64,000 nt of DNA. It comes from Gracilimonas sp. Lineage in GTDB: Bacteria; Bacteroidota; Rhodothermia; Balneolales; Balneolaceae. Where the stretch lies: assembly GCF_040218225.1 (NCBI RefSeq), contig NZ_JAVJQO010000004.1, positions 310,001 to 374,000 on the forward strand. The letters are read 5' to 3'. How positions within the stretch are numbered: position 1 is the first letter of the stretch; each line of letters begins with the position of its first letter. Shown piece by piece: positions 44,505 through 52,383 of this stretch. The notes below the pieces were generated by a model that did no database searches, was not told the DNA's origin, and saw only the letters and a program-made list of their open reading frames with translations. The translations under genes were made by a program, and so were the position numbers.

Positions 44505-44608
44505 AATAATTCCCCTTGATTGATATTTCAGTTTTAGATTACTTATTGGTGTGTGTTACTGTGGTTTGCGTAAAAAATGGGCGACCACATCAAATAAATT
44601 TTCCGGAT

Positions 44609-45172
44609 GTGAAAAGGGATGTAACAGAATTACTCATCGACTGGAGAGAGGGCGATAAAGAAGCTCCCGAAGAAATATTTCCACTCGTTTACCAGCACTT
44701 AAAGAATATAGCGAAGGCTCACATCATAAAAGAGAATAATGAATTCACCCTTCAGCGCACCGAGCTGGTTCACGAGGTCTTTTTAAAGATGGCCGATCAA
44801 ACCCGGGTTAACGCATCCGACCGAAATCACTTTTACAGCATTGCCTCCCGATGTATGCGGCAAATTCTTGTTGACCATGCCCGAAAGAAAAACAGTGAGA
44901 AACGGGGGGGCGGAGAAAAAGCAATCACCCTCGATGAAAATCTCGCCGCTGATGCTGCTACCGCTTCAGACATCATACATATTGATGAAGCCCTCAGCAA
45001 GCTCGCTGATCTGGACAAACGCATGTCGAAAGTAACCGAACTTCATTTTTTTGGCGGATTGAGCATCCCTGAAACCGCAGAGGTAATGAGTGTTTCCACC
45101 AGTACCATCGATCGCGAGTGGAAAAAAGCAAAGCTTTGGCTTTACCAGTTTATTACTGAACAAAAAGACTGA
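44609..45172 (+). CDS. ECF-type sigma factor (TIGR02999-like)
   Basis: A sigma-70 family factor of about 187 residues. Region 2 includes AHIIKENNEFTLQRTELVHE and FYSIASRCMRQILVDHARKK; region 4 ends with LSIPETAEVMSVSTSTIDREW. The HARKKNSEKRGGG linker and the Ser/Thr kinase just downstream match the ECF subfamily that works with kinases. The frame is open back to a TTG at 44516, but those 31 extra residues look unlike a sigma N-terminus, and that TTG overlaps the Shine-Dalgarno site of the divergent gene; GTG at 44609 gives the usual length. It may control the divergent surface-protein gene. Confidence 0.85.
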   Translation: MKRDVTELLIDWREGDKEAPEEIFPLVYQHLKNIAKAHIIKENNEFTLQRTELVHEVFLKMADQTRVNASDRNHFYSIASRCMRQILVDHARKKNSEKRGGGEKAITLDENLAADAATASDIIHIDEALSKLADLDKRMSKVTELHFFGGLSIPETAEVMSVSTSTIDREWKKAKLWLYQFITEQKD

Positions 45173-45205
45173 GGTGTTCCGGATTTTTTTACGCATACCG
45201 ATAAA

Positions 45206-47398
45206 ATGGATGAACAACGCTGGCATACGATTAATAAAATTCTGGATACAGCCCTGAGCCTCCGGGAAGAAACACGTTCCGATTACGTGCGGGAAACCTG
45301 CGGGGAGGATGCTATTCTGGCTGATGAGATTCTGGCCTTGTTAGAAACCCTACCTAAAAGTGATGCATTCTGGAAATCAAAGAAAGGGTTAAACGAAACA
45401 CTGCTCCATAACTATAACCAGACTTTGTCTGATCAATTCACTCCTTTCCGGATAGGAAAATATCAGGTTTCGGAAGTTATCGGGCAGGGTGGCATGGGCA
45501 TGGTGTATAAAGCACATCGTGCAGATGGTGAGTTCGAGCGATCTGTGGCTATCAAAGTGGTAAGTGAATATTTTACTTCTGAAGGAATGCTGAACCGCTT
45601 CCGGCAGGAGCGACAGATATTAGCCAAACTAAATCACCCCAATATTGCCGTATTATTTGATGGCGGTGTTAGTGAGGCCGGCCGGCCTTATCTGGTTATG
45701 GAGCTTATTTCCGGAAAACCTATTACTGAGTATTGTGAAGATAAAAATTCAGGGCTTTCCGAACGGATTGAGTTGATCAAAAAATTGTGCTCAACTGTCC
45801 AGTATGCCCATCAGAATTTGGTAGTACATCAAGACATTAAGCCCTCTAATGTATTAGTTGATGAACGGGGTGAACTGAAAGTTCTGGACTTCGGAATTGC
45901 CCGGCTTTTGGAAGATTACAATGCCACAGATTCTACCGCACAATTGATGAGCTTACAGTATGCCTCTCCTGAACAGGTTCGTAATGATGTCATTTCCACG
46001 ACTTCGGATGTGTACAACATCGGGCTGATTGCATACGAGCTAATTGCCGGGAAAAAACCTTTTGATCTCTCTGGATTGAACCGGTCTGAAGTCAAAGAAA
46101 AAATCCTCAATGAACATCCCGCCCCACTTCCTGCTACCATCAGTCGTGATCTTGAATCCATTATTCTGAAGGCCCTTCAAAAAGATCCAAAGAAACGCTA
46201 TGCTACCACAAATGAGCTCTTTGAGGATTTGCTCAATTTTCAGCAGCACTATCCGGTAAAAGCAGCATATAATGGGATTTCATATCGGATCACAAAGTTT
46301 TTAAAACGAAATCAAAGGATCGCTGCTATTGTGGGCTTTGTGATTTTAGCAGCGACTTCCTTTCTGTTTTATCACCTTCGAACCATTTCATCAGAAAGGG
46401 ATAAAGCTCTTGAAGAAGCTGAAAAAGCGCGAATTACCAGTGCCTTTATGTCGGGCGTATTTGAGAATGCTGACTATACCCGCGATAATGAAACGGCCAT
46501 CACTTCCAACCAGTTTCTTGATGATGGCGTTGAATACATTCACCGGGATCTTGGGGACTACCCCGATGTACAGGCGAACTTGCTCGAGACCGTGGCTCGT
46601 ATTCATCACAATCTTGGAAATCTGGATAAGGCTGAAGCACTGTATTTAGAAGTTGCTTCTATCAGAGAAGAGCTTCCTTCAGATCATCCCGAAAAACATC
46701 TACTGGCTTCTTGTTATCACAACTTAGGTGATTTTTACCGGGATCGGGGAAACTACTCCAAATCAGAAGGCTATTTCATTCAGGCATTAGAACAAAAACA
46801 AAACAGTCCTGACATTGAGTTTGCCTCGCTCGGAAATACCATGGAAGCATTGGGGTGGACCTGGTTTATCCAAGGTAAAACTTCAAAGGCCGACTCTATT
46901 CTAAGTATTGCCCAGTCCGGTTATGAATCTGCCCAAATGACCGAAACTATCTTGTACTCTAACGTGCTACAAAATCTGGCTTGGATTCATTTTTCAAACA
47001 ATGATGCACAAAAATCAGACAGCCTTTTCAGAGCTGCACTCAGCTTAAGAGAAGAACTTCATGAAAGCAACGCCCCCAATGCCTCCAGAAAAGTGATCGC
47101 TCAAACCCTGCACAGTCTCGGCTGGGTTACTTTTGTTCAGGGTAATCTTGATGAAGCGGCCAGTTTTACCGAACGTGCAGTCGAAATAAGAGATCAAACG
47201 CTGGGCCGAAACCATTTTGAAACTGCCTGGAGCCTGAATAACCTTGGGCTGATCGAGAGAGCCCGCAATAACAGGGATCGCGCCGGAAAGCTATTACAAG
47301 AAGCCTATGAAATCAGAAAAGAAATCTTGGGCGAGTCTCACCCGCATACCATTCAGAGCTTAAATAACCTTACCTTATTTGAGCAGGATCTTAAGTAA
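45206..47398 (+). CDS. Membrane Ser/Thr protein kinase with C-terminal TPRs
   Basis: A 730-residue Hanks-type kinase. An N-terminal helical stretch precedes the kinase domain (about 85-350): Gly loop VIGQGGMGMVYKA, Lys in VAIKVV, catalytic loop VVHQDIKPSNVLV (HQD replaces HRD), DFGIARL and SPEQV. A membrane helix (IAAIVGFVILAATSFLFYHL, near 376-395) follows, and then about 330 residues of TPR repeats (LHNYN-independent; for example AWSLNNLGLIERARNNRDRA) outside the cell membrane. It follows the ECF sigma gene by 33 bases, the usual sigma/kinase unit, and probably phosphorylates the sigma factor or its regulator. Confidence 0.9.
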   Translation: MDEQRWHTINKILDTALSLREETRSDYVRETCGEDAILADEILALLETLPKSDAFWKSKKGLNETLLHNYNQTLSDQFTPFRIGKYQVSEVIGQGGMGMVYKAHRADGEFERSVAIKVVSEYFTSEGMLNRFRQERQILAKLNHPNIAVLFDGGVSEAGRPYLVMELISGKPITEYCEDKNSGLSERIELIKKLCSTVQYAHQNLVVHQDIKPSNVLVDERGELKVLDFGIARLLEDYNATDSTAQLMSLQYASPEQVRNDVISTTSDVYNIGLIAYELIAGKKPFDLSGLNRSEVKEKILNEHPAPLPATISRDLESIILKALQKDPKKRYATTNELFEDLLNFQQHYPVKAAYNGISYRITKFLKRNQRIAAIVGFVILAATSFLFYHLRTISSERDKALEEAEKARITSAFMSGVFENADYTRDNETAITSNQFLDDGVEYIHRDLGDYPDVQANLLETVARIHHNLGNLDKAEALYLEVASIREELPSDHPEKHLLASCYHNLGDFYRDRGNYSKSEGYFIQALEQKQNSPDIEFASLGNTMEALGWTWFIQGKTSKADSILSIAQSGYESAQMTETILYSNVLQNLAWIHFSNNDAQKSDSLFRAALSLREELHESNAPNASRKVIAQTLHSLGWVTFVQGNLDEAASFTERAVEIRDQTLGRNHFETAWSLNNLGLIERARNNRDRAGKLLQEAYEIRKEILGESHPHTIQSLNNLTLFEQDLK

Positions 47399-47443: not shown

Positions 47444-48010
47444 ATGAATGAAAAACACTTTCACATAAAAAACATGGTGTGCAGCCATTGTGCAGAAGTT
47501 CTGGAAGAAAAACTACTGGCCGCTGATTTTGAAATTCAGAAAATTGAGCTTGGTCTTCTCACCCTATCAAATCCCGTTACCCAAAACGAATATGAACGCC
47601 TAATACAGGTGGTAAGAAATAATGGTTTTGAAATTATCAACGATAAAGGAAGCCGTATTGTAGAGCAGATCAAACAGCTTATTGTAAAACTGGTTCGTAC
47701 TGACCAGGAGTTAGAGGGCAACCTTTCGGATTACCTCTCTAAAAAAATCAACAAAGACTACCAGCAACTCAGCCGGCTTTTTTCTAATGTGGAGGGCAAA
47801 TCCATTGAACGTTATTATATCTTACAAAAAATAGAGCGGGCTAAAGAACTCATCGTTTATGGAGAGCAAAGCCTCACAGAAATTGCTTACGAATTAGGAT
47901 ATAGTAGTCAGCAGCATTTTTCCCGGCAGTTCAAGAAAGAGACCGGTCTATCCCCATCACATTTCAAGGACGTGAAAGAGAATAAACGCATCTCCATTGA
48001 CAAACTCTGA
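47444..48010 (+). CDS. HMA-domain/AraC-type fusion regulator (first copy)
   Basis: A 188-residue protein. The N-terminal 65 residues are a heavy-metal-associated domain with the metal site NMVCSHCAEVLEEKL; the C-terminal 100 are an AraC-type DNA-binding domain (IERAKELIVYGEQSLTEIAY, LGYSSQQHFSRQFKKETGLS). A TTG at 47408 would add 12 residues, but the ATG at 47444 aligns with the start of the second copy at 51856 (MNEKHFHIKNMVC against MEKMTLHIKNMVC). It precedes a Zn/Cd-type P-ATPase on the same strand by 83 bases and is most simply its metal-sensing regulator; that is inference. Confidence 0.85.
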   Translation: MNEKHFHIKNMVCSHCAEVLEEKLLAADFEIQKIELGLLTLSNPVTQNEYERLIQVVRNNGFEIINDKGSRIVEQIKQLIVKLVRTDQELEGNLSDYLSKKINKDYQQLSRLFSNVEGKSIERYYILQKIERAKELIVYGEQSLTEIAYELGYSSQQHFSRQFKKETGLSPSHFKDVKENKRISIDKL

Positions 48011-48093
48011 CAAAATCCTGCACAAGAATTACAGAATACTGCAATACAAGAAGTCTGGCTAAGGCTATTTTAGGATGAACTAAGTTTTTATCC

Positions 48094-50043
48094 ATGATTT
48101 CATTCCTAAAAAAATACAAAGAAGTAGCCGTTGCCTCCGTTTTTTTGATTTTAGCGCTGGTTGTTCAGCATGCCTTATCATTTCCAAGTCAGGAGTTTGT
48201 GTATATCCCTCTTTTTGTGCTTTCCTACCTTTTTGTGGGCGGACCGGTATGGATAAAAGCCTGGCAGTCAATGAGAAAAGGGACCGTTTTCAGTGAATTC
48301 TTCCTGATGGGCATTGCCACAGTCGGAGCGTTTGCTCTGGGAGAATATGCTGAGGGAGTAGCGGTAATGCTGTTCTATATGATTGGAGAATATGCGCAGC
48401 ACGGGGCGGTTACCAAGGCCCGTCATTCTATTCAAAAGTTGCTTGATCAGCAACCGGATATAGCCACGGTAGAGCGAAACGGAGCAACCTTAATGGTTCA
48501 TCCTTCACAAGTTAATATTGGTGATGTCATTCAGGTCAGGCCGGGTGAAAAAGTCCCTCTGGATGGAGAGCTGCTTTCAGAAAAAGCTTCCTTTAATACG
48601 GCTGCACTGACCGGCGAATCGAAGCCCATGAACCGGACTTCTGGGGAGGAGATTTGGGCCGGATCCATCAACCAGAACACTCCTGTAAGAATTAAGGTAA
48701 CCAGTAGTTTTAAAGACACCAAATTATCACACATCCTGGAGATGGTGCAGGAAGCCTCACAACGTAAAGCGCCCACTCAGCGCTTCATGACAAGGTTTGC
48801 TAAAGTTTATACGCCCATCGTCGTATGGCTGGCTGTTGCGGTCACTTTTCTGCCTTACCTTTTTGTTGAGTCTTATGTATTTCAGGAATGGTTTTATAAA
48901 GCACTCGTTTTTCTTGTTGTCTCCTGCCCATGTGGATTGGTGATTTCCATCCCGCTGGGCTATTTTGGCGGCATTGGTGCGGCTTCAAGAAATGGAATCT
49001 TATTGAAGGGCTCTGACTACCTGGATCAGCTTCGAAAGATGAATACGTTGTTCATGGATAAAACCGGAACCCTCACAGAAGGCTCCTTTGAGGTGCAGGA
49101 TGTCATCACTCATAACGGGGTCAGCAGTGATGAAATCATTGGCATCGCAGCTTCTCTTGAACAACACTCCACTCACCCGATTGGAAAGGCTATTCTTGCC
49201 TTTAAAAACGGACAAACCCTTCACGAAGTCGAAAACCAGCAGGAAGTTTCGGGGAAAGGACTAAAAGGCATGATCAACCAGCAACAAGTTTTAGTTGGAA
49301 ACCATGATTTGCTGGCAGAACACGATGTGGAAATCTCGAACGCCAACTACTCCAAACCTTATACTTTTGTACATGTAGCCATAGATGGAGAACACGCAGG
49401 CACCATAACTATATCCGACCGGGTTAAAGAAGACAGCAAGCGAGCCATCGAAGATCTCAAGGCAAAAGGAATTCAGCGATTGGTCATGCTTTCCGGTGAT
49501 AACCCTGAAGTGGTTTCTTTTGTAGCCAATGAGCTTGGGATTGATGAAGCCTATGGCGGACTTCTTCCTGATGAAAAATATGAGAGGGTGGAAGAAGCCC
49601 TTGGCAAAGGCAATATCGTGGGCTTTATGGGAGACGGAGTGAATGATGCGCCGGTAATTACTCTGGCTGATGTAGGTATTGCCATGGGCGGTATTGGTTC
49701 TGATGCTACCATCGATACAGCCGATGTGGTCATTCAAACCGATCAGCCCTCCAAAGTGGGAAAAGCCATAGATATATCCCGATTCACCCATAAAATTGTA
49801 TGGCAAAACATTGGCTTTGCCCTGGGCATCAAAGTGTTGGTAATGGGGCTTGCAGCCGCCGGCCTGGCCTCGATGTGGGAGGCTATTTTTGCTGATGTAG
49901 GCGTTGCCCTTATCGCGATTGCCAATGCAATCCGGGTTCAAAACAAATTTTCTGAAGATGGTTCAATATTCGACTTATTCAGGAAAGGGAATAAAGTTTC
50001 GGAGCCTGAACTTGCTGCGGTTTCTTGCTGTGATGCTTGTTAA
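48094..50043 (+). CDS. Heavy-metal (Zn/Cd/Co-type) P-type ATPase
   Basis: A 649-residue P1B-type efflux ATPase. Motifs in order: actuator TGESKPM, metal-channel SCPCGLVISIP, phosphorylation DKTGTLTEG, HP locus STHPIGKAI and hinge GDGVNDAPV. It lacks the usual N-terminal HMA domain: the protein starts directly at the first membrane helix. Instead it ends in a Cys-rich tail SCCDAC. CPC plus HP motifs indicate soft divalent ions such as Zn, Cd, Pb or Co. It follows the HMA-AraC regulator and converges with the ICMT/permease operon, 12 bases between stops. Confidence 0.93.
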   Translation: MISFLKKYKEVAVASVFLILALVVQHALSFPSQEFVYIPLFVLSYLFVGGPVWIKAWQSMRKGTVFSEFFLMGIATVGAFALGEYAEGVAVMLFYMIGEYAQHGAVTKARHSIQKLLDQQPDIATVERNGATLMVHPSQVNIGDVIQVRPGEKVPLDGELLSEKASFNTAALTGESKPMNRTSGEEIWAGSINQNTPVRIKVTSSFKDTKLSHILEMVQEASQRKAPTQRFMTRFAKVYTPIVVWLAVAVTFLPYLFVESYVFQEWFYKALVFLVVSCPCGLVISIPLGYFGGIGAASRNGILLKGSDYLDQLRKMNTLFMDKTGTLTEGSFEVQDVITHNGVSSDEIIGIAASLEQHSTHPIGKAILAFKNGQTLHEVENQQEVSGKGLKGMINQQQVLVGNHDLLAEHDVEISNANYSKPYTFVHVAIDGEHAGTITISDRVKEDSKRAIEDLKAKGIQRLVMLSGDNPEVVSFVANELGIDEAYGGLLPDEKYERVEEALGKGNIVGFMGDGVNDAPVITLADVGIAMGGIGSDATIDTADVVIQTDQPSKVGKAIDISRFTHKIVWQNIGFALGIKVLVMGLAAAGLASMWEAIFADVGVALIAIANAIRVQNKFSEDGSIFDLFRKGNKVSEPELAAVSCCDAC

Positions 50044-50055
50044 TTTTTAGATACT

Positions 50056-50517
50056 TCAAATCCAGCGCCGGACTTCCTCTTTGTACTCCACAAACTCCTT
50101 CCCAAACTTTTGCTCCATCATTTCTTCTTCGGGTTGAACCTGGAATATATTCATGTACCAAATAAATAACGCAGGGATCAACATGGTGAGCCCGTTTCCA
50201 AATTTCATAACCCCGGCCAAAAGAATAAACACCATGCCGAGATACATCGGGTTTCGGGTAAAGCGGTAGATTCCTGATTTGACAAGTGCAGTGGTATTCT
50301 GTGGCTTATGTGGATTAACCGTGGTTGATTTTCGACTGAATTCAATCACCCCAAGAAGTACAATCGAACCACCAACCAGAACAAGGCCGCCAAACAACCA
50401 ATCCGGAAAGTCAAAAGTTGTTGGTTCAAAATTGAGCCGCTTATCTAAACCCCACATCAACCCGATGCATATCAAGAAAAGAAGTGCCGGCGGGATTTTT
50501 AATTTGAGCCATTTCAT
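50056..50517 (-). CDS. Isoprenylcysteine carboxyl methyltransferase-like membrane protein
   Basis: A 153-residue membrane protein with four to five helices. The C-terminal half carries the ICMT/PEMT signature (GIYRFTRNPMYLGMVFILL, QVQPEEEMMEQKFGKEFVEY), which binds S-adenosylmethionine in relatives. The substrate is unknown; bacterial relatives often lie near metal-resistance genes. It overlaps the permease gene by 4 bases and is last in the HMA-AraC/permease/ICMT operon. Confidence 0.85.
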   Translation of the reverse strand: MKWLKLKIPPALLFLICIGLMWGLDKRLNFEPTTFDFPDWLFGGLVLVGGSIVLLGVIEFSRKSTTVNPHKPQNTTALVKSGIYRFTRNPMYLGMVFILLAGVMKFGNGLTMLIPALFIWYMNIFQVQPEEEMMEQKFGKEFVEYKEEVRRWI

Positions 50518-51275
50518 AGTAATCCTGTTTTAGATAAAATCATGTAAGATCCACTTATAACCATAACGACCAGCACGTATTTTCGGAAGGTATCATCGGT
50601 CATAGAACTTAGTAGCTTTTTCCCAACCAGGTTTCCTGCTGTGGCTCCCAACCCTAACACGATTCCCAATATCCATAAGTCGCCGTATAGCGCTCCTAAA
50701 AAAGAATACGTTCCAATCTGTACAATCCCCATAAAAAAGGAATTGGCTGTTTTGGTAGCGATCATTTCTTCTTTCAGAATCCCTGCGTTGAGGTAAAACG
50801 GATTAAGTACCGGGCCAAGTCCGCCCACGATAGTTGAAATGGAAGCCACTCCCACCCCAAGCGGAAGCCAGTACCACTTCTTCATTCTGAAGGTGCGTTC
50901 TTTTTTCCCAAACCGATATTGAAAAACCGTGCTCACCAAAAAGACACCAATAATAACCTGAAACCAGCTTGCCTCTACCTTGGTGAACAGCCACCCAGCG
51001 ATTAACACACCGACCACAGCAGCCGGGGCATACCACCTGACAACATCCCACCTGATATCATCCCAGAAAATAATGAGCCGTGAAGGACGACCAATCAAAT
51101 CTCCAAGGTTGATTATAGGCGCCACTACTTTCGGGCCAAACATAAAATTAATGGCAGGAATCAAAAGGAGTGAGCCGCCACCGCCTGAAATCACAGAAAT
51201 GATGTAAGCACCCATCCCTGCAAAGAAGACAGCTGCGTACATCCACCAGGGCTCTGTAAACAGGGATTCTATCAT
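50514..51275 (-). CDS. TauE/SafE (TSUP) family permease
   Basis: A 253-residue membrane protein with about eight helices. It contains the two-fold GGGGSLLLIPAINFMFGP and VGGLGPVLNPFYLNAGI segments of the sulfite exporter TauE/SafE family. Members move sulfur oxyanions or organosulfonates, and some are linked to metal stress. The HMA-AraC gene is 8 bases upstream and the methyltransferase overlaps downstream, so it is one operon. Confidence 0.87.
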   Translation of the reverse strand: MIESLFTEPWWMYAAVFFAGMGAYIISVISGGGGSLLLIPAINFMFGPKVVAPIINLGDLIGRPSRLIIFWDDIRWDVVRWYAPAAVVGVLIAGWLFTKVEASWFQVIIGVFLVSTVFQYRFGKKERTFRMKKWYWLPLGVGVASISTIVGGLGPVLNPFYLNAGILKEEMIATKTANSFFMGIVQIGTYSFLGALYGDLWILGIVLGLGATAGNLVGKKLLSSMTDDTFRKYVLVVMVISGSYMILSKTGLL

Positions 51276-51283
51276 GAATGCTT

Positions 51284-51856
51284 CTAAATTTTATCGAGGG
51301 CTTTTCGCTCTGGGTTTTGCAGCTTCTGATAGTCACTCATACTCATGCCCGTAATCTCTTTAAATTGCCGGGACAAGTGCTGAAGATTTTTATACCCCAG
51401 CTGGTAGGCAATTTCGCTGAAGCTAAGATTTCCGTATTCCACCCGTTCTTTGGCTTTTTCAATTTTGAGCCGGATGAAGTACTTCTCAATGGTAACTTCT
51501 TCTTTCTTTGAAAAAGCACGGGAAATGGTAGCATAACTTTTAGCCAGGTGTGTAGCCAGAAAATCAGACAGTGAAGTCTCATCGGTTTCAAGCTTTCCGG
51601 ACTCCACCCATTCAATCAGGGTGGTTTTTACTTTTTCAACAAGAATGGAGTCGTCATCTTTCAATAAACCGAAGTTAAACCGATCCAATTCTTTTTCGAT
51701 TTCCCGAAGAGTTGGGTGTTCTCCATTGCGGGTTACTTCAGCTTTGCCGAGTTGTACGTGGTTTACTTCTAGCCCAAGTGCAGTGAGAGCCGTCTCAATA
51801 ACCATCTCGCAGCGGCCACAGACCATATTTTTTATATGCAGTGTCATTTTTTCCAT
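51284..51856 (-). CDS. HMA-domain/AraC-type fusion regulator (second copy)
   Basis: A 190-residue protein with the same design as the protein at 47444. The HMA domain has NMVCGRCEMVIETAL (residues 10-24), and the AraC-type DNA-binding domain has KIEKAKERVEYGNLSFSEIA and LGYKNLQHLSRQFKEITGMS. The two are roughly one-third identical and clearly paralogous. It heads an operon with a TSUP permease and an ICMT-like protein. The 164-base upstream gap holds its promoter and a 10-bp inverted repeat. Confidence 0.87.
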   Translation of the reverse strand: MEKMTLHIKNMVCGRCEMVIETALTALGLEVNHVQLGKAEVTRNGEHPTLREIEKELDRFNFGLLKDDDSILVEKVKTTLIEWVESGKLETDETSLSDFLATHLAKSYATISRAFSKKEEVTIEKYFIRLKIEKAKERVEYGNLSFSEIAYQLGYKNLQHLSRQFKEITGMSMSDYQKLQNPERKALDKI

Positions 51857-51940
51857 GGTGTCAATGTAAACAGAAGTGGAAGTAACTGCATTCAGCCAAA
51901 AAATGTGTTACAAAATTCGGAAAAAAACTTACTGGATTAT

Positions 51941-52020: not shown

Positions 52021-52383
52021 TTATTCGACCCCCTTGTCTGACCAAACCGCAAACTCATTCCCGCTGGGTTCAATGAAATGAAAGCGACGTCCGCCTGGAA
52101 AAGAAAAAATATCCTTTATGATTTTTCCGCCTGCTGCTTTAACTTTTTGCTGTGTCGACTCTAACTCAGAGCTATAAAAAATTACAAGGGCCCCTCCGGC
52201 TTCAGTCGTTGATTTCTTTTCTGATTTAAAGAACCCGCCATTGATTCCTTCATTGGCAAAGTCACAATATTCCGGGCCATAGTCCGTGAACTTCCAGCCA
52301 AAAGCTTTGCTAAAAAATTTCTTGGTAGCCTCAAGATTAGATGACGGGAACTCTACATAATCGATTTTTTCGTGCTTGCTCAT
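52021..52383 (-). CDS. VOC family (glyoxalase/bleomycin resistance fold) protein
   Basis: A 120-residue single vicinal-oxygen-chelate protein. It begins DYVEFPSSNLEATKKFF and has KAFGWKFTDYG and a final FHFIEPSGNEFAVWSD, typical of small glyoxalase-like proteins of unknown substrate. The start is ATG, and no operon partner is evident. Confidence 0.88.
   Translation of the reverse strand: MSKHEKIDYVEFPSSNLEATKKFFSKAFGWKFTDYGPEYCDFANEGINGGFFKSEKKSTTEAGGALVIFYSSELESTQQKVKAAGGKIIKDIFSFPGGRRFHFIEPSGNEFAVWSDKGVE

What the first reader, a model, noticed from the sequence alone, without database searches (positions are those of the whole stretch)
47444..51856. Two HMA-AraC fusion regulators in one metal locus
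Two paralogous proteins of 188 and 190 residues join a heavy-metal-associated domain (NMVCSHC, NMVCGRC) to an AraC-type DNA-binding domain. AraC regulators normally sense through a cupin or other ligand domain, so a metallochaperone-like CxxC sensor is a compact alternative. One copy precedes a Zn/Cd-type P-ATPase, the other heads a TSUP/ICMT operon, and the two units face each other. The HMA domain could sense the metal directly or receive it from a chaperone, which would couple metal handling and transcription in one chain. Domain assignment is seen in the sequence; the regulatory role is inferred.
Basis: partly seen in the sequence, partly recalled or inferred. Interest (0 to 1): 0.68.

Follow-up and report, generated by a model that had tools for sequence, protein, structure and literature searches.

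The report
Metal-sensing AraC regulators with mapped operators
Two small proteins each join a metal-binding domain to a DNA-binding domain; they belong to a regulator family found in about half of the Bacteroidota genomes sampled, apparently never characterised, and comparison of relatives exposes the DNA switch through which they most likely turn on metal-export genes.

Summary
A (47444-48010, +, 188 aa, CSHC) and B (51284-51856, -, 190 aa, CGRC) each carry a βαββαβ HMA-type domain joined to an AraC DNA-binding domain. A precedes a Zn/Cd-type P1B-ATPase; B heads a TSUP-ICMT operon; the two units converge. The architecture is not rare: 181 of 394 sampled Bacteroidota genomes hold it. Members with intact CxxC sit within 5 kb of a P1B-ATPase in 101 of 152 cases; 16 Cys-lacking members (one clade) in none. 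A matrix trained on copper-type spacers recovers it in unused loci upstream of other metal genes (HMA-MauE 19/23, CopZ 11/13) against 23/767 other genes, at 0 of 30 ATPases in genomes without the family, and at both window promoters (48019-48045; 51907-51932). Best reading: cytosolic metal-responsive AraC-type activators, A for Zn/Cd efflux, B for its own operon. Metal binding, DNA binding and activation are untested. No published description found in the open-access library searched.

The parts
47444..48010 (+). A: HMA-AraC regulator, 188 aa; HMA domain residues 1-66 (C13-S-H-C16), AraC DNA-binding domain residues 68-181
   Evidence: CxHC clade of 15 members, 12 with a Zn/Cd-type and 1 with a P1B-4-like ATPase as the nearest one
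48019..48045 (+). Predicted operator of A: direct half-sites TGCACAA and TGCAAT, 21 bp apart
   Evidence: conserved in the CxHC clade; found at 14.5 bits by a matrix trained only on copper-type spacers; the only copy in the genome at up to 3 mismatches; coordinates
48066..48073 (+). Predicted -7 box TATTTTAG (consensus TAnnTTTG), 27 nt from the AA of the second half-site
   Evidence: sequence; spacing rule; consensus from PMC9723704 and PMC7366714
48094..50043 (+). P1B-type ATPase of the Zn/Cd group, 649 aa, no N-terminal HMA domain, Cys-rich end (CCDAC)
   Evidence: paired with A in relatives
50056..50517 (-). ICMT/PEMT-family membrane methyltransferase, 153 aa (CzcN-like by context)
   Evidence: CzcN described as ICMT in PMC7563307
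50514..51275 (-). TSUP (TauE/SafE) permease, 253 aa
   Evidence: present in some B loci of the genus, missing in others
51284..51856 (-). B: HMA-AraC regulator, 190 aa (C-G-R-C), first gene of the B-TSUP-ICMT operon
51907..51932 (-). Predicted operator of B: GTAAG-N16-GTAAC direct repeat, 21 bp apart
   Evidence: 13.9 bits with the copper-trained matrix; similar sites (9.6-19.6 bits) in 6 of 9 orthologues, of which 5 lie about 47-56 bp before the gene; coordinates

Best explanation
A and B are cytosolic, one-component, metal-responsive activators of the AraC family in which an HMA-type domain replaces the usual ligand domain. Shown by sequence: the domains, the conserved gene partners, and a conserved operator of two 21-bp-spaced direct half-sites whose downstream half abuts the -35 region, with the -7 box at a fixed distance. 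Inferred: excess Zn/Cd (A) or a soft metal of undecided identity (B) binds the CxxC of the HMA domain. The protein, as a dimer on the two half-sites, then recruits RNA polymerase at promoters lacking a good -33 element. A switches on the separately transcribed P1B-ATPase; B switches on its own operon (B-TSUP-ICMT). Most relatives in Bacteroidota do the same for copper genes.
For: (1) HMA and AraC domains. (2) A P1B-ATPase lies within 5 kb of 101 of 152 CxxC members, the nearest one downstream on the same strand in 89 of 101; with 4 such ATPases in 3.54 Mb about 1% is expected by chance. (3) 16 SxxC members have none. (4) In 32 non-redundant spacers repeats occur at lag 21 (25 against 2.3 expected, z 11.7) and at no other lag. 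(5) Held-out test: 59 of 127 metal-gene upstream regions against 19 of 652 others; HMA-MauE 19/23, CopZ 11/13, P1B-ATPase 22/40, ArsP/SO_0444 permease 5/7, others 23/767 (labels checked); reversed-sequence null 7/990. (6) The -7 TTTG, not part of the matrix, lies at 27-28 nt in nearly all copper-type training spacers and in 62 of 89 held-out hits. (7) 0 of 30 ATPases in genomes without the family carry the site, maximum 3.2 bits, nor do the three other ATPases of this genome. (8) Sites also occur near Cys-lacking members that have no metal genes, so the site follows the regulator rather than the metal gene. (9) The CxHC clade differs both in its half-sites (TGCA) and at two residues beside or in the second HTH recognition helix.
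Against: No experiment: metal binding, DNA binding and the sign of regulation are unproven. Pfam HMA scores of A and B are below the curated cut-off. Sequences are related, so p-values overstate independence; the Cys change is one clade, with three CIRC members inside it. The B site is missing in 3 of 9 orthologues at this sensitivity, and B's -7 box is poor. About 45% of held-out ATPase upstream regions show no site above 10 bits, so some may be regulated otherwise or sit inside operons.
Confidence: 0.72

Rival explanations
1. The proteins bind the same operators but as repressors, or as repressor-activators in the manner of MerR, with metal causing release or DNA distortion.
For: The operator abuts the promoter, where a bound protein could also block polymerase; many metal sensors are repressors (general knowledge).
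Against: The site lies upstream of, and not across, the -7 box and start; the distance to the -7 box is rigid at 27-28 nt, as expected for contact with polymerase; two direct half-sites 21 bp apart resemble the classical AraC activator arrangement (general knowledge).
Confidence: 0.15
2. The HMA domain is a structural or dimerisation module that does not sense metal; the regulator answers to something else, such as oxidative or envelope stress.
For: A clade with SxxC keeps the domain and sits with Dps, BON and cupin genes, so the domain can work without CxxC; A and B score poorly against Pfam HMA.
Against: CxxC is invariant in the 49-member alignment (most of these members were found by a pattern that covers the motif) and present in 152 of 168 members overall; its loss goes with loss of metal neighbours (138/152 against 2/16).
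Confidence: 0.1
3. Another regulator binds the 21-bp repeats; HMA-AraC is a metal-buffering passenger gene.
For: Binding is not shown; the same operator could serve a regulator encoded elsewhere.
Against: No site upstream of 30 ATPases in genomes without the family; sites accompany the regulator also where metal genes are absent; half-site and DNA-binding helix change together in the CxHC clade; the 21-bp direct repeat is what an AraC-type dimer would bind.
Confidence: 0.06

Closest known systems
AraC/XylS family one-component activators (AraC, MarA/SoxS)
   Same: Seven-helix DNA-binding domain with two HTH motifs (Z 12.6-15.2 to AraC, MarA, SoxS and AraT domains); tandem direct half-sites 21 bp apart next to the -35 region, as recalled for araI1-araI2
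   Different: Ligand domain is a 66-residue HMA-type domain instead of a cupin; metal rather than sugar or drug is the likely signal; operator sequence and Bacteroidota -7 promoter are its own
CueR/ZntR/MerR metal sensors
   Same: Cytosolic one-component regulators placed beside P1B-ATPases
   Different: Different DNA-binding fold and metal site; MerR proteins bind an inverted repeat inside an overlong spacer and twist DNA (general knowledge); here a direct repeat lies upstream of the promoter
Copper chaperones Atx1/CopZ and N-terminal HMA domains of P1B-ATPases
   Same: Beta-alpha-beta-beta-alpha-beta fold with CxxC in the first loop
   Different: Fused to a DNA-binding domain; motif IKNMVCxRC or CxHC instead of GMTCxxC
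CzcN/NccN (ICMT in czc/ncc loci)
   Same: ICMT-type membrane protein in a divalent-metal locus (PMC7563307)
   Different: Different operon partners; orthology not tested

Membership tests
AraC/XylS regulators | AraC-type DNA-binding domain with two HTH motifs above the curated score | tested here: met
   HTH_18 72.2 and 59.1 bits, cut-off 33.6; fold Z up to 15.2
AraC/XylS regulators | Binding to tandem direct half-sites at target promoters | tested here: inconclusive
   conserved 21-bp direct repeat at the predicted targets; binding itself not tested
HMA domain | CxxC in the loop after the first strand | tested here: met
   C13 and C16 in A, CGRC in B
HMA domain | Beta-alpha-beta-beta-alpha-beta ferredoxin-like fold | tested here: met
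   model of A, Z 8.0-8.5 to Atx1, CopZ, HAH1, GolB
HMA domain | Detected by sequence profile | tested here: inconclusive
   single sequences are below Pfam's cut-off (7 of 49 relatives match at E<=0.01), but the family profile matches HMA structures at 1.2e-8
HMA domain | Binds a metal ion | not testable with these tools
   needs purified protein
P1B-2 (Zn/Cd/Pb) ATPase, gene 48094-50043 | CPC in the membrane part and the DxG-type last motif; Zn/Cd subfamily score | tested here: met
   SCPCG, ADVGVALIAIANAIR (sequence); TIGR01512 502 bits over its cut-off, TIGR01511 under its cut-off
MerR-type metal sensor | MerR DNA-binding domain | tested here: not met
   no MerR family among the Pfam and NCBIfam matches listed; AraC domain instead

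The most novel reading that the evidence does not exclude
HMA-AraC proteins are a phylum-wide, undescribed class of metal-sensing activators that serves as a main cytosolic copper and zinc efflux switch of Bacteroidota, with metal choice written in the second loop residue (CxRC with copper pumps, CxHC with zinc pumps), and with one branch that lost a cysteine and was turned to Dps/stress genes while keeping the same kind of operator.
Probability: 0.45. Interest if true: 0.75.

Novelty: new variant of a known kind. Interest (0 to 1): 0.6.

Why it matters
How Bacteroidota sense copper and zinc is, to my knowledge, poorly charted. Here a regulator present in about half of the sampled genomes of the phylum gets a defined partner set, a defined operator with fixed promoter geometry, and a built-in control (a Cys-lacking clade). 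This makes regulon prediction possible from sequence and gives simple tests: gel shift on a 27-bp site, C-to-S and H-to-R changes, and a metal-inducible promoter module for laboratory Bacteroidota.

Tried and rejected
(a) Recent tandem duplication of A and B: rejected, they lie in distant clades. (b) Autoregulation as a family rule: not supported, 5 of 84 regulator upstream regions have a site; three of the nine B orthologues have none above 9 bits. (c) A strict IUPAC pattern for B's site over the genome: missed the B site itself at 2 mismatches and gave one unrelated match. (d) My first automatic Cu/Zn typing of ATPases was faulty for copper pumps and was redone; 5 of the nearest ATPases remain untyped. 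(e) I first labelled the copper neighbour 'HMA-TauE'; Pfam shows HMA plus MauE. (g) Literature: searches for AraC with HMA, copper or Bacteroidetes found no description; the library holds only open-licence papers, so absence is weak evidence. (h) A search for a paper on AraC half-site spacing found none; that comparison rests on general knowledge. (i) The Ser/Thr kinase and ECF sigma factor upstream of A were considered as part of the unit: not kept at A in most relatives.
Full report
OBSERVATION. A (47444-48010, +) and B (51284-51856, -) are 38% identical end to end. Both have a strong AraC DNA-binding domain. The N-terminal part is hard to see by single-sequence search (B 20.1 bits against a 24.8 cut-off, A nothing; 7 of 49 relatives at E<=0.01). 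A profile of 32 relatives matches HMA domains of ATP7B (1.2e-8), CopA and CopZ, and the AlphaFold2 model of A (pLDDT 89.1) has strands and helices in the order βαββαβ over residues 5-65, superposing on Atx1, CopZ, HAH1 and GolB at Z 8.0-8.5.

LOCUS. A is followed after 83 bp (86 bp counting A's stop codon) by a 649-aa P1B-ATPase with no N-terminal HMA domain. It passes the Zn/Cd subfamily model and fails the copper one and carries CPC and ADVGVALIAIANAIR (sequence). B is followed after 8 bp by a TSUP permease, which overlaps an ICMT-type gene. The two units converge with 12 bp between them. In the genus the A-ATPase/ICMT-(TSUP)-B block is kept whole in four other genomes; A-ATPase alone is kept in more distant genomes of the family amid different flanks; B also occurs without A. 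ICMT genes in divalent-metal loci are known from czcN (PMC7563307).

FAMILY. The architecture is common: 181 of 394 Bacteroidota genomes at E<=1e-25, 54 of 58 close relatives with at least a weak (E<=0.001) match, plasmids, and MAGs labelled Ignavibacteriota and one Woeseia (possibly misbinned). In annotated plasmids it is called simply 'AraC family transcriptional regulator' and lies with copper genes; no NCBIfam model claims it above cut-off. On a tree of 168 members (quick method) A falls in a fully supported clade of 15 CxHC members and B in a separate fully supported clade of 10, so the two are ancient paralogues brought together.

PARTNERS. Among 168 members with a readable motif, 101 of 152 with CxxC have a P1B-ATPase within 5 kb and 138 of 152 some metal gene. 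Of 16 with SxxC, none has the ATPase and 2 have any metal gene. With four such ATPases in this 3.54-Mb genome, chance would give about 1%. The nearest ATPase is downstream on the same strand in 89 of 101, and the spacer is most often 78-108 bp. ATPases next to CxRC members are mostly copper-type (71); those of the CxHC clade are Zn/Cd-type (12) or P1B-4-like (1). The CxRC members with a Zn/Cd-type ATPase nearest are the seven B orthologues, whose own operon is the convergent one. The His/Arg correlation rests on one clade and is a lead, not a code proven. The SxxC group is also one clade, with three CIRC members inside that likewise lack metal neighbours, so the Fisher values overstate independence.

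OPERATOR. Spacers between regulator and ATPase share two direct half-sites. In 32 non-redundant spacers, repeated 5-mers occur 25 times at a distance of 21 bp against 2.3 expected (z 11.7); no other distance from 8 to 39 bp exceeds z 2.4. Copper-type consensus: T(t/c)A(C/T)AA-N16-T(A/G/C)(C/T)AA; zinc-type: TGCAC(a/g)AGAATTACA.AA..TGCAAT. A matrix from the 30 non-zinc spacers was used on loci not in training. It scores over 10 bits upstream of 19/23 HMA-MauE membrane proteins, 11/13 CopZ, 22/40 P1B-ATPases and 5/7 ArsP/SO_0444 permeases, against 23/767 other genes (family labels checked by Pfam). Reversed sequences give 7 of 990 over 10 and 0 over 15, against 89 and 71. ATPases from 20 Bacteroidota genomes without the family give 0 of 30, maximum 3.2 bits, and the three other P1B-ATPases of this genome give none. 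The TTTG of the Bacteroidota -7 box, which was not in the matrix, starts exactly 27 or 28 nt from the AA of the second half-site in nearly all copper-type training spacers and in 62 of 89 held-out hits, with three instances at any other distance from 15 to 45 nt. The -7 consensus TAnnTTTG spans -12 to -5 (PMC9723704), so the operator lies at about -60 to -35. This is the geometry of an activator touching polymerase at a promoter with a weak -33 element (inference).

THE WINDOW'S OWN SITES. The copper-trained matrix, which had seen no zinc site, scores 14.5 bits at 48019-48045 between A and the ATPase and 13.9 bits at 51907-51932 upstream of B. At A a -7-like TATTTTAG follows at 27 nt. Some B orthologues have TTTA at 28 nt; the window's B promoter is weaker there. 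The A site is unique in the genome at up to three mismatches. In the CxHC clade two residues at about 156 and 159, beside or in the second recognition helix (156-167), changed together with the half-site, which points to the regulator itself as the binder.

CYS-LACKING CLADE. Members with SxRC keep the N-terminal domain and stand near Dps, BON, cupin, PAS-kinase and other stress-type genes; matrix hits over 15 bits occur upstream of nine genes in these loci (three CIRC members' loci included), among them Dps, a BON protein and a cupin. The operator thus follows the regulator even where metal genes are absent.

MECHANISM. Most likely an intracellular metal binds the CxxC of the HMA domain, the protein sits as a dimer on the tandem half-sites and activates. 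A controls the Zn/Cd ATPase, which is transcribed apart from A; B controls its own operon. Shown: domains, partners, operator, geometry. Inferred: metal identity, direct binding, activation. Direct sensing against hand-over from a chaperone or from the ATPase cannot be told here; the lack of an HMA domain on the window's ATPase leaves room for an exchange role of A.

NOVELTY. AraC regulators and HMA domains are both well known; a metal-sensing AraC class with this operator is not described in anything I could find, within an open-licence library only. I file it as a new variant of a known kind.

Noticed in passing
L179, L188, L192, L194, L207, L211, L176 (Bacteroidota loci): A Cys-lacking branch of the same family (SxRC, with a few CIRC members) sits beside Dps, BON, cupin and PAS-kinase genes and carries the same 21-bp operator upstream of several of them: a likely stress regulon.
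   Followed up: partly
L163 (about 8387) and L168 (about 8774): CxHC members also stand near P1B-4-like ATPases (SPC, HEGST), hinting at cobalt or iron besides zinc.
   Followed up: no
window 44516-47398: ECF-type sigma factor (Sigma70_ECF) followed by a Ser/Thr kinase with TPR repeats directly upstream of A, next to a 1315-aa secreted repeat protein on the other strand; only partly kept at A in relatives.
   Followed up: partly
L092 (genes 8 and 9), L106 (genes 7 and 8): Two adjacent HMA-AraC genes in tandem beside ATPases; the second copies are on very long branches with motif GMVCxRC.
   Followed up: no
L152, L153 upstream of B: Two close relatives that lack the TSUP gene also lack the B operator.
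   Followed up: partly
window 52024-52383: A VOC/glyoxalase-family gene stands upstream of the B operon in the same direction and recurs there in several relatives.
   Followed up: partly
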